DNA from: an uncultured Erysipelotrichaceae bacterium
GTDB taxonomy: Bacteria; Bacillota_I; Bacilli_A; RF39; UBA660
Direction of reading: 5' to 3'
Assembly: GCA_902783895.1 (NCBI GenBank)
Contig: CACZST010000031.1
Span: 1-40,552, forward strand
Length of the DNA stretch: 40,552 nt
In this document: piece after piece, positions 14,617 through 34,720 of the stretch
Numbering within the stretch: the stretch's first letter is position 1
How the letters are laid out: every line of letters begins with the position of its first letter
Made by a program: the position numbers and the translations under genes
The notes under the pieces: generated by a model
What the model saw: the letters and a program-made list of their open reading frames with translations, nothing else
What the model was told of the DNA's origin: nothing
Database searches by the model: none

Positions 14617-14784
14617 ATATATAAAGTTAACTACTAGATACGATAAAGCCATACTTACTATTAGATAAAATACCCTTGCTTGATAATATCTATTCTTTTT
14701 AAAAATTCCTGATATGTTTAAACTTTCTAATGTCCAGATTGATAATACTAATCCTAGTATATATAATATTGCTTTAATCGACAA
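14587..14784 (-). CDS. DUF1146 (YwzB-type) small membrane protein
   Basis: This 65-aa protein has two membrane segments, about residues 3-21 and 38-60, separated by a short basic loop (KKNRYYQARVFY) typical of DUF1146. It starts with TTG at 14784, inside the 3' end of rpiB (11-nt overlap). There is no clear ribosome binding site, so it probably depends on translational coupling. In B. subtilis ywzB lies between the atp operon and murAA-spoIID, which agrees with its place before spoIID here. Function unknown. Confidence 0.75.
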   Translation of the reverse strand: MSIKAILYILGLVLSIWTLESLNISGIFKKNRYYQARVFYLIVSMALSYLVVNFIYEFFAVTKIV

Positions 14785-15289
14785 AATTATTTAACATATC
14801 AATTCTTCTTTGGTGTCTTTCTAGGTTGCTGAATTTTGTTTTTAAAAAGGTGTCTACGATATCTTTTGCTTTAAAGGTTAGCATGTCACCACTTATGGCA
14901 ACTATATTAGCGTCATTGTCTATTCTTGTGTATTTTGCTTCTTTAACATTATCAACTTTAGCACATCTGACGCCTTTTATTTTGTTGCAAGCGATACTAA
15001 TTCCAATACCACTACCACAAATGGCTATTCCTTTTTCAATTTCACCGGATCTTATAGCTTTTCCTAATTTAAAGCCATATTCGGGATAATCATGACTTTG
15101 AGTATCATCACATCCGTAGTCAATGATAGTATATCCTTTTTTAGTTAAATATTTTGTAAGTTTTTGTTTTAATTTATATCCGCGGTGATCAGAGGCAATT
15201 CCTATTTTTTTTGTAGGAACTTGCATGATAATTGTTTTTTCTTGATAATCGTTTTTTACAATTTCTTCTAGTGTTGCTTCTTTTTCCAT
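14774..15289 (-). CDS. rpiB: RpiB/LacAB-family sugar-phosphate isomerase
   Basis: This 171-aa member of the RpiB family interconverts ribose-5-phosphate and ribulose-5-phosphate in characterised members. Motifs are IASDHRGYKLK (31-41), SHDYPEYG, CGSGIGISIACNK with catalytic C91, and ERHQRRID with phosphate-binding arginines. The usual R-x-H-N motif, whose His opens the sugar ring in E. coli RpiB (H99), reads TRIDNDAN here, with D124 in place of His. About 25 extra residues precede the usual start; a strong AAGGAGG supports the long start and none supports M22. Activity or substrate may differ from true RpiB. Confidence 0.87.
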   Translation of the reverse strand: MEKEATLEEIVKNDYQEKTIIMQVPTKKIGIASDHRGYKLKQKLTKYLTKKGYTIIDYGCDDTQSHDYPEYGFKLGKAIRSGEIEKGIAICGSGIGISIACNKIKGVRCAKVDNVKEAKYTRIDNDANIVAISGDMLTFKAKDIVDTFLKTKFSNLERHQRRIDMLNNFVD

Positions 15290-15300
15290 ATTAGTCCTCC

Positions 15301-17766
15301 TTATCTTGTTTTTATTGATTCATTGATTTCTTCTTTTTTGAAGGTATTTAAAACTTCATTATATTCTTTTAAAGCTCTTTCATCATATTTTAAGCAGCAT
15401 TTTTCTATTATGATATCCCCATCATATAATATATACCAATTTTCACCATTTATCATTTGTAGGTCTTTGTTTATATTTTTATATTTAAATGGTTGATTTG
15501 TTTGATGAGCGTATATGGCATTTATTTTATTTATATATTCTTCATTAGCTTTAGTGTTTTTAATTTCTCTTCTTGGGGCTAAATATTTTGCTTCAGAAAT
15601 TCCTGGTTTTATTTTTTGTGGGGTTATTTCACCGATTGCTGACGCTAGACATACTAAATCAAATTTCCCATAATCAGTTCTAAAATATCCTTGATCTGGA
15701 TGATTTAAGTTTATACTTCTTTTAGCAAAGTTTTTCCAGTCTGTTATATTCATTGGTTTAATACCTATAAGATTTTTAACATCATCTGAAATATTTGGTT
15801 TTATAAATAAAAGACAATGGCTTTGGGTTGCGATAACAAAATCTATTTTATTTTCTTCTGCATTATTATTTTGTGATATTTCAACTATTTCTTCACAAGC
15901 TTTTTTGAAGGCATTAATTATTTTATTCCTTTCAGTTGGTTTGGCAATTATTTTGTCATCATATACTGAAAGTAATTGATTAATATAAACACCGTTACCA
16001 TTTCTAAATCCTGACGCTCTGGCGATGAGGTTATTTTTTTCATCGGTAATTTTCATAACAAAACCATTGTCATTTAAGACGCAGTAGTGGAAAAAGTCAT
16101 TATCTTTTCCACCTATTTGAAAACAAGAATGGGTATCGATACCTGATGTTAGAATTGATTCATCATTTGGGGTATAAATAGAGTAGTGATAGTCGTCACA
16201 TTGTCCGTTTATGTATGGGACAGTGGATTTATTTCTTTTTGGCATTTGCGCAACTAGGTCGCATGCTCGTTCAATGTTAGATTGTTTATCTAATTTGTGA
16301 ATAATTTCACTGTTTAACATACATAAGCTTTTGTCATTTGCGATTGTTGATAGTCGATTAAACTTTGTTATTTTACTAATATTTTTAATTGAAAATTCTT
16401 CTCCTTGCATGTATTTAGTTATGTTATCAAAGTTTTCAATTATTTCATATAGAAGCGATTCTAAATCTTCGAAATTATTTATAAATCTATTTTCATTTGG
16501 GATTGAGAACGTTAACTGCATAAAGCCATTTTTTATTAGTAAATTATATAAGTTATTATAAGTTTTATCATTTAAAATTATGTTTGGATTTTCATTTAAT
16601 TTTTCTATTATTTTTGTTAATCCTTTTATTGGTGTTTGATTTATTGATTCAAAATTAAATTTGTAAAAATCATCATTAAATTTTATTTCTTTTATTTTTC
16701 TTTTTACTTCTTCTTCGGTGATTTCTTCATTTATATTAATTGTTTTAGCAATGTTTAAAATTACTGATTTTAAATTATTAAATATTTGATTTGCTCTTTT
16801 GTATCTAGTTATTTTTTCTAATTCGACTTCATTAAAGGTAACACCATTATAGAAATATTCTTTACCATTAAAATCTATAAGTATTTTATAGTCACTAACA
16901 TCGCCATGTTCATAGGTTATATTACCTTTATTAAGTCGGTTGATTATTTTTTTAGCTTTTAAATAATCCTCATATTCAGAAAGTTTTGGTGGAAGTTCGA
17001 CTAGGTTTTTAATATCAAGAGCCTTTCCAGTAATAATTCCATCAATTGCGACATCAATAAATTTTTCTACACGGTTATCATTAATGTCTTTAAGAAAACT
17101 TTGTTTTATAATATCTAATTGTTTAAATAGCGTTTCATCATTATTTAAATATTTATTAAGTAATGCCTCTCTTTGTTTTTCTTCAATGGTAAATTTTCTT
17201 ATTTTACTGTTATTGGTATCTAAAGTAAATAAACTTTGATAATCACTTTCTAAATTTTTCATTTGTGCAGATAGAAAATTATCTTTACATTTCCCACTAT
17301 ATAATGCGGTTAAATTTGCGATAATGTTTCTTTCTTGAACGAGTCTTTGAGTATTTTTATTAGTGTGATATTCTTGATAATAATTAACTATTGCTTTTTT
17401 TAATTCACTTGCTTTATCACCAATTACTTTTGAGGCTCTTTTTATGTAAGTTAATTCTTTTAAGGCTGATTCAAAATCTTTATTTTCTTCTAAAGCATTA
17501 CAAGTTCTTTCAAACAAATTTAAATATAAGTCCTGATTCTTTTCTTTTTGAATATCCCATTTATTTTCTGCTATTTTATATAGATATTGTTTAAGATTTG
17601 TGATTAATAATGGTTCAGTTAGAAAACCTTTAATTATGTTTTTTAATCTTGTTTTATATATTTCGTTTTCTTTTGTAATATTTTCAATGTAAAAGTTCAA
17701 CATATCTTCTTCTTTTAAAATAGATAATGGTAATTCATCATAAGTTTCAATATTTTTATTTGGCAT
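15301..17766 (-). CDS. Large unrecognised protein with a conserved-looking Cys/His core
   Basis: This 821-aa, soluble-looking protein has no signal peptide or membrane segment. GGAGGTAGTAAT precedes the ATG. Residues 1-250 are charged and helical (many Lys/Glu/Asn). A small beta region (YKILIDFNGKEYFYNGV) lies near 310. The best-ordered part is about 500-610: DDYHYSIYTP, SGIDTHSCFQIGGKDND, FFHYCVLNDNGFVMKI, then ARASGFRNGNGVYINQL. Alternating strands and glycines there suggest a compact alpha/beta domain, faintly like domains seen in PcfJ-type accessory proteins. The C-terminal 200 residues have more Cys and aromatic residues. It begins the unit that runs into rpiB after 11 nt. I cannot assign a function. 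Confidence 0.8.
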   Translation of the reverse strand: MPNKNIETYDELPLSILKEEDMLNFYIENITKENEIYKTRLKNIIKGFLTEPLLITNLKQYLYKIAENKWDIQKEKNQDLYLNLFERTCNALEENKDFESALKELTYIKRASKVIGDKASELKKAIVNYYQEYHTNKNTQRLVQERNIIANLTALYSGKCKDNFLSAQMKNLESDYQSLFTLDTNNSKIRKFTIEEKQREALLNKYLNNDETLFKQLDIIKQSFLKDINDNRVEKFIDVAIDGIITGKALDIKNLVELPPKLSEYEDYLKAKKIINRLNKGNITYEHGDVSDYKILIDFNGKEYFYNGVTFNEVELEKITRYKRANQIFNNLKSVILNIAKTININEEITEEEVKRKIKEIKFNDDFYKFNFESINQTPIKGLTKIIEKLNENPNIILNDKTYNNLYNLLIKNGFMQLTFSIPNENRFINNFEDLESLLYEIIENFDNITKYMQGEEFSIKNISKITKFNRLSTIANDKSLCMLNSEIIHKLDKQSNIERACDLVAQMPKRNKSTVPYINGQCDDYHYSIYTPNDESILTSGIDTHSCFQIGGKDNDFFHYCVLNDNGFVMKITDEKNNLIARASGFRNGNGVYINQLLSVYDDKIIAKPTERNKIINAFKKACEEIVEISQNNNAEENKIDFVIATQSHCLLFIKPNISDDVKNLIGIKPMNITDWKNFAKRSINLNHPDQGYFRTDYGKFDLVCLASAIGEITPQKIKPGISEAKYLAPRREIKNTKANEEYINKINAIYAHQTNQPFKYKNINKDLQMINGENWYILYDGDIIIEKCCLKYDERALKEYNEVLNTFKKEEINESIKTR

Positions 17767-17847
17767 ATTACTACCTCCATTATTTAAATTATATCATTTT
17801 TGACTTTAAATGTATCAAATTTATATACATAACTTAATATTAGACAT

Positions 17848-17874
17848 TAAAAAAAGTATAGTTTTGACTATACT
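17848..17874 (-). terminator. Terminator of the rpsF-ssb-rpsR operon
   Basis: The arms agtatagt (17855-17862) and actatact (17867-17874) pair over 8 bp and are followed by seven T on the minus strand. The rpsR stop lies in the stem. Confidence 0.8.
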
Positions 17875-18984: not shown

Positions 18985-19008
18985 GAAAAAATCAGTTAGC
19001 TACTGATT
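18985..19008 (-). terminator. Terminator of the surface-protein gene
   Basis: The arms aatcagt and actgatt pair over 7 bp around 5 nt, with a T-run on the minus strand. The TAG stop at 19000-19002 lies in the loop and stem. Confidence 0.7.
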
Positions 19009-20121
19009 CTTTTTTGTTATATGTTTTGTTACTATTACAGCTAAAGATATGAATATAATTCCAATACTTGCGATTATTATAGACATTTGTGCGGATGTTG
19101 ATGGTACTTCTACTACTTGTGTATTTTCGGTATCTTTAACATTACAGGTTCCATCATCAATTGTATTTAAATTTCCACTTATATATACATTCATACATTT
19201 CGATAGTTCATTAGAATATATCGGGCCATCATAAACTGCATGCATATTTCCGCAAATCTCATTGCGCTCTTCTATAGTGTTAGATGAATAGAGCATATAA
19301 GAATTGCTACAGAAATTTAATGTTAATTTGTTATTTTTTACCTCTAACCAATTCTTTGCATCATTTATTTTTAAGTCTTTTATTTCTGGATTTACATATA
19401 TACTAAAATTAGGTTTTTGATCTTTTAAATAGCCAAAAACAAAATTAGTATTGAATTTTAATGCTTCTTCATTTGTTTTTGTATTATAACCTTTGTTTAT
19501 GTATATACTTTTAATATCATCGTAACTCGATACAACTACAGGCCCATCTAATTCAATAGTTCCACCATTTAAATACATGGCATTTTTATATCCAATAAGA
19601 GCCGATTTTTGTCCTTCACGAGGCATTACTTTTACATTTGATCCATCGTTAGCTATTATTGCTATATCATTAGCAAATATATAGGGGTCATATATATTAA
19701 CATTTCCGCCATTTGCGACTATGGCATTACCTGCTCTAATTTCTCTACTGCTAATATTAACATTCCCACTGTTTATAACTAATGCTTTACCTCCTTTTAT
19801 TTCATAATTTCCTTCATTTTTATTTCCAGTCGTTAAATTTACATCAATATTAACATTTGCATTATTCACTTCTAATAAGGTTTTATCATCATTTAAGAAA
19901 ATTTCATTGTCGTAATGTTCATAAGTAATATTAGTATCTTTATTAATTGTTATGGTATCTTTTACTTCGATATCACTATTTATCACAATATCTCCACCTT
20001 GAGATATTGCAGCTCTTAATTCTTCTTCATTATTTACAACAGTTTCTGCATTTACTTTAAAGCTTGGGGTAATAAATAATGATAAAATTAACATTCCTAA
20101 AATTAAACTAAATTTTTTCAT
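19000..20121 (-). CDS. Membrane-anchored beta-helix surface protein
   Basis: This 373-aa exported protein has a signal peptide with a likely cut after VNA (about residue 25). About 30-220 are short repeated strands rich in Asn, Gly, Val and Ile (NVNIDVN, SGNVNISS, GGNVNIYD), typical of a right-handed parallel beta helix as in pectate-lyase-like adhesins. A more compact segment with four to five cysteines follows (about 268-325), perhaps disulfide-bonded. The tail is VPSTS, a hydrophobic segment and KHITKK. That architecture resembles a sortase-type signal with V for L and S for G, or may be a plain membrane anchor. It is monocistronic. The ligand is unknown. Confidence 0.78.
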   Translation of the reverse strand: MKKFSLILGMLILSLFITPSFKVNAETVVNNEEELRAAISQGGDIVINSDIEVKDTITINKDTNITYEHYDNEIFLNDDKTLLEVNNANVNIDVNLTTGNKNEGNYEIKGGKALVINSGNVNISSREIRAGNAIVANGGNVNIYDPYIFANDIAIIANDGSNVKVMPREGQKSALIGYKNAMYLNGGTIELDGPVVVSSYDDIKSIYINKGYNTKTNEEALKFNTNFVFGYLKDQKPNFSIYVNPEIKDLKINDAKNWLEVKNNKLTLNFCSNSYMLYSSNTIEERNEICGNMHAVYDGPIYSNELSKCMNVYISGNLNTIDDGTCNVKDTENTQVVEVPSTSAQMSIIIASIGIIFISLAVIVTKHITKKNQ

Positions 20122-34442: not shown

Positions 34443-34454
34443 CTTTTTTATAAA

Positions 34455-34700
34455 CCGGTGCGAGGAAGAAGTAGAAAACTAAACATAAAGAGAACTCTAG
34501 TTGGTGGGATGGAGGATGTATATGGTTTTCGAACATGGCCCTCAAGGTTAATGTCTGAAATAATAGTAGGTCATTACAGGAACGCCTGTTATAGCGTATA
34601 ACCTTTTGGGGTTTATAAGGTTAGTGTGGTAACATACTAATGAATTAAGAGTGGTAACGTGTTTTTAACACCTCTTAGACTTTATGTCTTAGGGGTTTTT
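34455..34700 (+). promoter_or_regulatory. T-box riboswitch (Met) controlling metG
   Basis: Stem I runs from GAGG (34462 area) to CCTC (34539 area). It contains the distal AGAGAACTCTAGTTGGTGG element and a specifier loop GAACATGG, with ATG (Met) at 34535-34537. Further hairpins follow (ACAGG/CCTGT; AACCTT/AAGGTT; an 8-bp stem capped by GTAA). The antiterminator is AAGAG (34647-34651) / CTCTT (34672-34676), with the bulge TGGTAAC (34652-34658) and stem GTGTT/AACAC. TGGT can pair with the ACCA end of uncharged tRNA-Met. The competing terminator is CCTCTTAGAC (34671-34680) / GTCTTAGGGG (34686-34695), then T5. CTCTT is shared, so the two folds exclude each other. Uncharged tRNA-Met should switch metG on. 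Confidence 0.93.
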
Positions 34701-34720
34701 ATTTTGAAAGGGTGATTATA

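What the first reader, a model, noticed from the sequence alone, without database searches (positions are those of the whole stretch)
15301..17766. An 821-aa protein of unknown family joined to rpiB and sporulation genes
It is the second-largest gene here and the only large one with no recognisable function. A compact segment (about 500-610) has patterned Cys, His, Gly and aromatic residues (GIDTHSCFQIGGKDND, ARASGFRNGNGVYINQL) while the rest is charged and helical, suggesting one enzymatic or binding domain inside a large scaffold. It is 11 nt from rpiB and upstream of DUF1146-spoIID, which B. subtilis does not have at this place. That makes it the best candidate for something new.
Basis: partly seen in the sequence, partly recalled or inferred. 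Interest (0 to 1): 0.62.

Follow-up and report, generated by a model that had tools for sequence, protein, structure and literature searches.

The report
Unnamed accessory protein with GNAT-like domain
This gene makes a large helical protein that ends in a domain folded like acyl-transferring enzymes; it belongs to a widespread, fast-changing and so far unnamed family in uncultured gut bacteria, and its place next to rpiB and sporulation genes is a one-off insertion, not a functional link.

Summary
The ORF is real and intact (15301-17766, minus strand, 821 aa, 11 nt before rpiB); no Pfam, NCBIfam, PHROG or PDB sequence match is significant. Profile searches reveal a large unnamed family: 89 of 288 genomes of the same order (all listed hits in one family of small-genome gut Bacilli), up to 6 places per genome, about 400-1700 aa, with no convincing match in the phylum sample outside that family, phages, plasmids or viral contigs. 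AlphaFold2 (pLDDT 95) gives a GNAT-like fold at residues ~512-712 (Z up to 9.2; 8.1 at rank 50, nearly all GNATs), with invariant G542 and C548 and near-invariant R588, but no GNAT acetyl-CoA motif. The rest is mostly helical. About a quarter of members adjoin a small cold-shock-domain-like gene (24 of the 27 best genome-wide hits); the window's 14-member clade has none. The rpiB/spoIID linkage is not conserved: 28 congeners lack the gene there and none of 104 other family loci is near rpiB, rpsR or spoIID. Best reading: an accessory chromosomal non-canonical GNAT-fold transferase or effector, probably nucleic-acid related; fold well supported, catalysis and substrate inferred. It resembles PcfJ proteins structurally; profile comparison does not support membership.

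The parts
15301..17766 (-). complete ORF, 821 aa, accessory member of an unnamed GNAT-fold family
16234..17766 (-). residues 1-511: mostly helical N-terminal region, variable in length and sequence across the family (some members carry weak DUF4116 repeat matches here)
   Evidence: AlphaFold2 secondary structure; alignment; DUF4116 in 5 of 44 members. Fold of this region not searched on its own.
15631..16233 (-). residues 512-712: conserved GNAT-like domain (predicted order strand-helix-helix-strand-strand-strand-helix-strand-helix-strand)
16123..16143 (-). G542-x-x-T-x-x-C548 motif; G and C invariant in 84 of 84 members
15994..16005 (-). R588-N-G-N591 motif; R 83/84, G 75/84, N591 69/84
15304..15630 (-). 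residues 713-821: conserved C-terminal extension with three strands and a long helix (R732, W777, D795, E801 conserved)
   Evidence: not matched by the GNAT structures
17849..17874 (-). hairpin plus T run directly after rpsR: likely intrinsic terminator of the rpsF-ssb-rpsR unit (overlaps the rpsR stop codon)
   Evidence: fold z-score -3.5; sequence; hairpin-like inverted repeats with T runs visible by eye at the same place in congeners
17788..17793 (-). TATAAT, preceded by TG at the extended -10 position: putative promoter of the gene
   Evidence: seen by eye; the consensus scan finds no more sites than shuffles do, so this is weak
17774..17778 (-). GGAGG Shine-Dalgarno 7 nt before the ATG
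   Evidence: sequence
14774..15289 (-). rpiB, 11 nt downstream with its own AAGGAGG; backbone gene, not part of the module

Best explanation
An accessory, single-gene chromosomal insertion between rpsR and the rpiB-DUF1146-spoIID unit. It encodes a protein with a large, fast-evolving helical N-terminal region, presumably for recognition or scaffolding, and a C-terminal GNAT-fold domain with an invariant Cys (C548) and near-invariant Arg (R588). Shown: ORF, family, purifying selection, conserved residues, lack of neighbourhood conservation. Predicted with high confidence: GNAT-like fold. Inferred: that the domain is a non-canonical transferase which does not bind acetyl-CoA through the usual RxxGxG loop, with C548 and R588 in or near the active site, and that the family acts on a nucleic-acid-related target, because in other lineages the gene overlaps a cold-shock-domain-like gene. 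In the window's clade that partner is absent, so this member would act without it or with an unlinked one. The patchy distribution, several copies per genome and variable N-terminus suggest a conflict or effector type role rather than core metabolism or sporulation.
For: High-confidence core model (pLDDT 95.1, pTM 0.92). VIA-align Z 9.2 to 8.1 over ranks 1-50, nearly every row titled as an acetyltransferase or GNAT, where the tool gives 4-5 as typical at rank 50 for models without a clear match; same result from the full-length model. 84/84 conservation of G542 and C548. dN/dS 0.11-0.53 in nine pairs. 89 of 288 genomes in the order, up to 6 places per genome, but absent from 8 whole congener genomes and from the site in 28 congeners. 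Cold-shock-like companion adjoining 22 of 90 listed member entries (19 downstream, all overlapping; 3 upstream at -1 to +15); profile of the companions hits solved cold-shock domains at E 1.3e-5; 24 of the 27 companion-profile hits with E <= 1e-8 in 288 genomes lie beside a family member (my count).
Against: No GNAT sequence profile matches. The acetyl-CoA motif is missing, so the domain could be non-catalytic. Foldseek against PDB is only E 0.011 for the whole protein. The window's own clade lacks the companion gene, so the nucleic-acid link is by analogy. Neighbours show no enrichment for defence or mobile genes.
Confidence: 0.5

Rival explanations
1. The domain keeps a GNAT-like fold but is not an enzyme: it is a binding module (protein, RNA or DNA) in a large scaffold, in the way PcfJ-like proteins of phages and conjugative plasmids might be.
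For: No RxxGxG acetyl-CoA loop. Among viral proteins, phage proteins named PcfJ-like or carrying the PcfJ Pfam domain are among the better structural matches (E 9e-4 and 2e-3; LP65 Orf137 is PcfJ by Pfam, E 1.2e-16).
Against: Invariant Cys and near-invariant Arg in a fast-evolving protein argue for a catalytic or strictly chemical role. Profile-profile comparison with PcfJ gives probability 0.1-0.2%.
Confidence: 0.25
2. Toxin or immunity-type conflict gene: the large protein is a toxin or antiphage effector and the small overlapping cold-shock-like gene its antitoxin or regulator.
For: Patchy distribution and several copies per genome; strictly coupled small overlapping gene in a quarter of member entries; other linked partners in other subgroups (ankyrin protein upstream, degenerate ProA/ALDH-like gene downstream).
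Against: The window member and all 14 members of its clade lack the small gene, as do most other members; no PADLOC model matches the proteins well; neighbours are mostly housekeeping genes; the size is unusual for a toxin of a toxin-antitoxin pair.
Confidence: 0.2
3. A sporulation- or rpiB-related function, as the neighbourhood suggested.
For: Same strand, 11 nt from rpiB, which has its own ribosome-binding site, so probably co-transcribed.
Against: Linkage unique to this genome: 0 of 104 other family loci; 28 congeners have rpiB-spoIID without the gene at this site.
Confidence: 0.02

Closest known systems
GNAT superfamily (Gcn5-related N-acetyltransferases: Gcn5/PCAF, RimI, NatD, staphylococcal 3d8p)
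   Same: Predicted fold and strand/helix order of residues 512-712; Z up to 9.2 over about 140 residues
   Different: No GNAT Pfam match; no RxxGxG acetyl-CoA loop; invariant Cys and RNGN motif; large helical N-terminal region and an extra C-terminal segment
PcfJ-like proteins (PF14284) of phages and conjugative plasmids (LP65 Orf137, pCF10 PcfJ)
   Same: Large protein with a C-terminal compact domain; structural match in the viral library; both have an invariant Cys, preceded six residues earlier by a Gly (invariant here, common in PcfJ), and two antiparallel strands after it (by-eye comparison)
   Different: No profile-profile support (0.1-0.2%), different conserved residues (PcfJ: E-G-x-x-L-x-H-C-V, T-x-E, Q), not on phages or plasmids
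GNAT-fold transferases that do not use a CoA loop (leucyl/phenylalanyl-tRNA-protein transferase, FemX type)
   Same: GNAT fold without the CoA motif (the lack of the motif in those enzymes is from established knowledge); Aat is a weak Foldseek hit (2dpt, E 0.29)
   Different: No sequence match; only one weak structural hit; aminoacyl-tRNA use is untested
Cold-shock domain proteins (companion gene only, in other lineages)
   Same: Companion profile matches Unr and CspB-type domains at E 1.3e-5 and weaker
   Different: RNP1-like segment altered to G-x-x-G-x-I; overlaps the large gene; absent from the window and its clade

Membership tests
GNAT superfamily | GNAT fold topology | tested here: met
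   predicted model only: (Z 9.2-8.1, nearly all of 50 rows GNATs)
GNAT superfamily | motif A (R/Q)xxGx(G/A) acetyl-CoA pyrophosphate loop between strand 4 and helix 3 | tested here: not met
   loop of 42 members printed, none has the motif
GNAT superfamily | match to a GNAT sequence model in Pfam/NCBIfam | tested here: not met
GNAT superfamily | acyl-CoA binding and acyl transfer | not testable with these tools
   needs purified protein
PcfJ (PF14284) | match to the PcfJ model | tested here: not met
   also no PcfJ domain in G000
PcfJ (PF14284) | profile-profile relation to phage/plasmid PcfJ proteins | tested here: not met
   hhalign probability 0.1-0.2%
PcfJ (PF14284) | shared fold | tested here: inconclusive
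   E 9e-4 to 0.03 to several PcfJ-like phage models, TM of target up to 0.52, not better than to viral GNATs
Toxin-antitoxin module (GNAT type) | small adjacent antitoxin gene | tested here: not met
   none in the window; present in 22 of 90 other member entries as a cold-shock-like ORF
Sporulation/rpiB-linked gene | conserved linkage to rpiB/spoIID | tested here: not met
Mobile-element cargo | found on phages, plasmids or viral contigs | tested here: not met
   (tblastn-level sensitivity only)
Known antiphage defence family | match to a PADLOC model | tested here: not met
   best E 0.013 to Cas1 models, one member

The most novel reading that the evidence does not exclude
A new class of nucleic-acid- or ribosome-modifying enzyme: a GNAT-fold, Cys/Arg-dependent, acetyl-CoA-independent transferase on a helical recognition scaffold, guided in many lineages by a dedicated cold-shock-domain partner and diversified as an effector arsenal in reduced-genome gut Bacilli.
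Probability: 0.15. Interest if true: 0.75.

Novelty: new variant of a known kind. Interest (0 to 1): 0.45.

Why it matters
These bacteria have small genomes (about 0.6-1.9 Mb in the sample), yet nearly a third of the sampled genomes carry one or more of these genes, up to 5 kb each. No database used here names the family, its domain has a recognisable enzyme fold with two or three fixed residues that make tests simple, and in a quarter of member entries it comes with a dedicated cold-shock-like partner. That makes the function directly testable.

Tried and rejected
Sequence families: Pfam, NCBIfam, PHROGs, PDB sequences, nothing significant; PADLOC on 44 members, nothing convincing. PcfJ membership: followed because phage PcfJ proteins topped the viral structure search; collected 14 PcfJ proteins from phages and plasmids, but hhalign and hmmsearch are negative. 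Linkage to rpiB/spoIID: tested in congeners and family loci, rejected. Mobile-element origin: no hit in phages, plasmids or viral contigs; composition (GC 25%, GC3 16%) is like the neighbours; 145 neighbour proteins show no recurrent mobile or defence family. L065 (FtsH) was a false family hit and was dropped; matches outside the family in the phylum sample (E 4.6e-4 and 7.6e-4, full of stops) are chance. Weak Pfam matches such as DUF2533 (E 0.34), Intein_splicing and EnY2 in single members were taken as noise. The N-terminal half was not folded or searched alone (no structure jobs left), so nothing is claimed about its fold. The best viral match, A0A7G9A3X2 (Bacteriophage sp., 656 aa, E 2.3e-7), could not be retrieved. 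The literature searches found nothing on PcfJ function that bears on this.

Full report
WHAT IS THERE. The ORF at 15301-17766 on the minus strand is intact, 821 aa, with GGAGG 7 nt before its ATG. It lies between rpsR, whose 3' end carries a hairpin plus T run (fold z -3.5), and rpiB (11 nt downstream, own AAGGAGG), followed by DUF1146 and spoIID. A TATAAT preceded by TG lies upstream; promoter scans are no better than shuffles here, so this is only suggestive. No sequence library gives a significant match.

THE FAMILY. Searching the same GTDB family with the single protein found 35 of 193 genomes; profiles extended this to 79 and then 89 of 288 genomes of the order, every listed match in that one family, with up to 6 places per genome and open frames of roughly 400 to 1,700 aa, apart from a few short fragments. 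In 392 genomes drawn from the phylum, matches outside the family were only two chance-level hits riddled with stops. A scan of the genome collection with a profile of the near clade gave 30 loci, all from uncultured Bacilli-type bins, many with gut or rumen names. Small size and gut origin fit RF39-like Bacilli, an order described as highly reduced (PMC6784871), but the taxon of the window itself is my inference. Tblastn and pattern searches of phages, plasmids and viral contigs found nothing. In nine related pairs dN/dS is 0.11-0.53, so the proteins are under purifying selection.

THE DOMAIN. Across 84 members the core is held together by G542 and C548 (84/84), R588 (83/84), P517 (81/84), G590 (75/84), and further down R732, W777, D795 and E801. 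AlphaFold2 gives pLDDT 89.6 for the whole protein and 95.1 with pTM 0.92 for residues 492-821. Residues 512-712 match GNAT acetyltransferases: Z 9.2 at best, 8.1 at rank 50, nearly every row titled as a GNAT or acetyltransferase. This is well above the 4-5 that the tool gives as typical at rank 50 for models without a clear match. The predicted order of elements (strand, two helices, three strands, helix, strand, helix, strand) fits GNAT topology. However, the loop after the fourth strand has no RxxGxG in any of 42 printed members and no GNAT profile matches. So the fold is GNAT-like, while acetyl-CoA use is not supported. The C-terminal 109 residues are conserved but not covered by the GNAT structures.

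THE PcfJ LEAD. In the viral structure library the better matches include PcfJ-like phage proteins, and LP65 Orf137 is PcfJ by Pfam (E 1.2e-16). By eye both families have G-x5-C before the strand pair. Fourteen PcfJ proteins were collected and aligned, but profile-profile comparison gave 0.1-0.2%, and viral GNATs score about as well. I therefore treat PcfJ as 'may share a fold', not as its family. The best viral match, A0A7G9A3X2 (E 2.3e-7 over 221 columns), is unnamed and could not be retrieved.

NEIGHBOURHOOD. In 28 congeners the rpsR-rpiB-DUF1146-spoIID order is visible without this gene (22 of them with rpsR in the fetched stretch, often only about 90-120 nt from rpiB). Some carry other single genes there, for example a small HTH protein or a 258-aa protein. 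Eight whole congener genomes have no family member. None of 104 other family loci has rpiB, rpsR, ssb, rpsF, DUF1146 or spoIID nearby. Its composition is like its neighbours', so there is no sign of very recent import. The 145 neighbouring proteins elsewhere are diverse and mostly housekeeping, without an excess of defence models.

THE COMPANION. Of 90 member entries examined (a few are fragments or duplicates), 22 have a 63-95 aa ORF beside them: 19 downstream, always overlapping, and 3 upstream. Two are recognised by the Pfam cold-shock model below its cut-off, and a profile of 22 such proteins (one from a fragmentary locus, L062) finds solved cold-shock domains at E 1.3e-5. In 288 genomes, 24 of the 27 best hits of this profile (E <= 1e-8) lie beside a family member; these are my counts. 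Ordinary cold-shock genes score weaker, including the only one in the window's genome. In the tree, companions occur in several deep branches, but in none of the 14 members of the window's clade; label changes were not tested statistically. The window member has no such gene.

MECHANISM. Most likely a non-canonical GNAT-fold transferase (C548 and R588 as chemical residues) carried by a helical recognition region, working near nucleic acid or the ribosome in lineages with the partner. Fold: predicted with high confidence. Catalysis, substrate and nucleic-acid link: inferred. Rivals are a non-catalytic binding module and a conflict-type effector; present data do not separate them.

VERDICT. It is a new, unnamed variant within a known fold, moderately interesting, and easy to test.

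Noticed in passing
L158, L159, L160, L161, L162, L164, L165, L166, L167: A 1,200-1,675-aa subgroup of the same family is followed by a gene, usually overlapping and about 330 aa long (two shorter), that resembles ProA/aldehyde dehydrogenase; by eye it lacks the catalytic-cysteine stretch, as a pseudoenzyme would.
   Followed up: partly
L145:7776-10886, L149, L150, L151, L154: A ~1,000-aa subgroup is preceded at -20 to +7 nt by a ~500-aa protein; the one scanned has weak ankyrin-repeat matches.
   Followed up: partly
L035, L072, L076 (near clade of the window protein): A 270-300-aa M28/M20-like peptidase gene lies directly upstream at -5 to +24 nt.
   Followed up: no
L169:31329-32918 (LP65 orf137) and other PcfJ proteins: PcfJ-like phage proteins appear structurally similar to GNAT-like folds when searched from this model; the fold of PcfJ itself was not predicted here.
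   Followed up: partly
L105, L112, L126, L127, L110, L115 (rpsR-rpiB gap of congeners): The same intergenic site holds different single genes in different species (small HTH protein, 258-aa protein, ~440-473-aa protein on the other strand), as if it were a permissive insertion point.
   Followed up: partly
window 34449-34678 (+): T-box leader (94.1 bits, gathering 93) ahead of the ORF at 34712.
   Followed up: no
window 19000-20121 (-): 373-aa protein with an apparent signal peptide and C-terminal hydrophobic stretch, no significant family; a second unknown gene of the window.
   Followed up: no
L131 (1503-3239 and 4809-6449): Two family ORFs matching the N- and C-terminal halves of the family profile are separated by a 424-aa reverse ORF, as if one gene were interrupted.
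   Followed up: no
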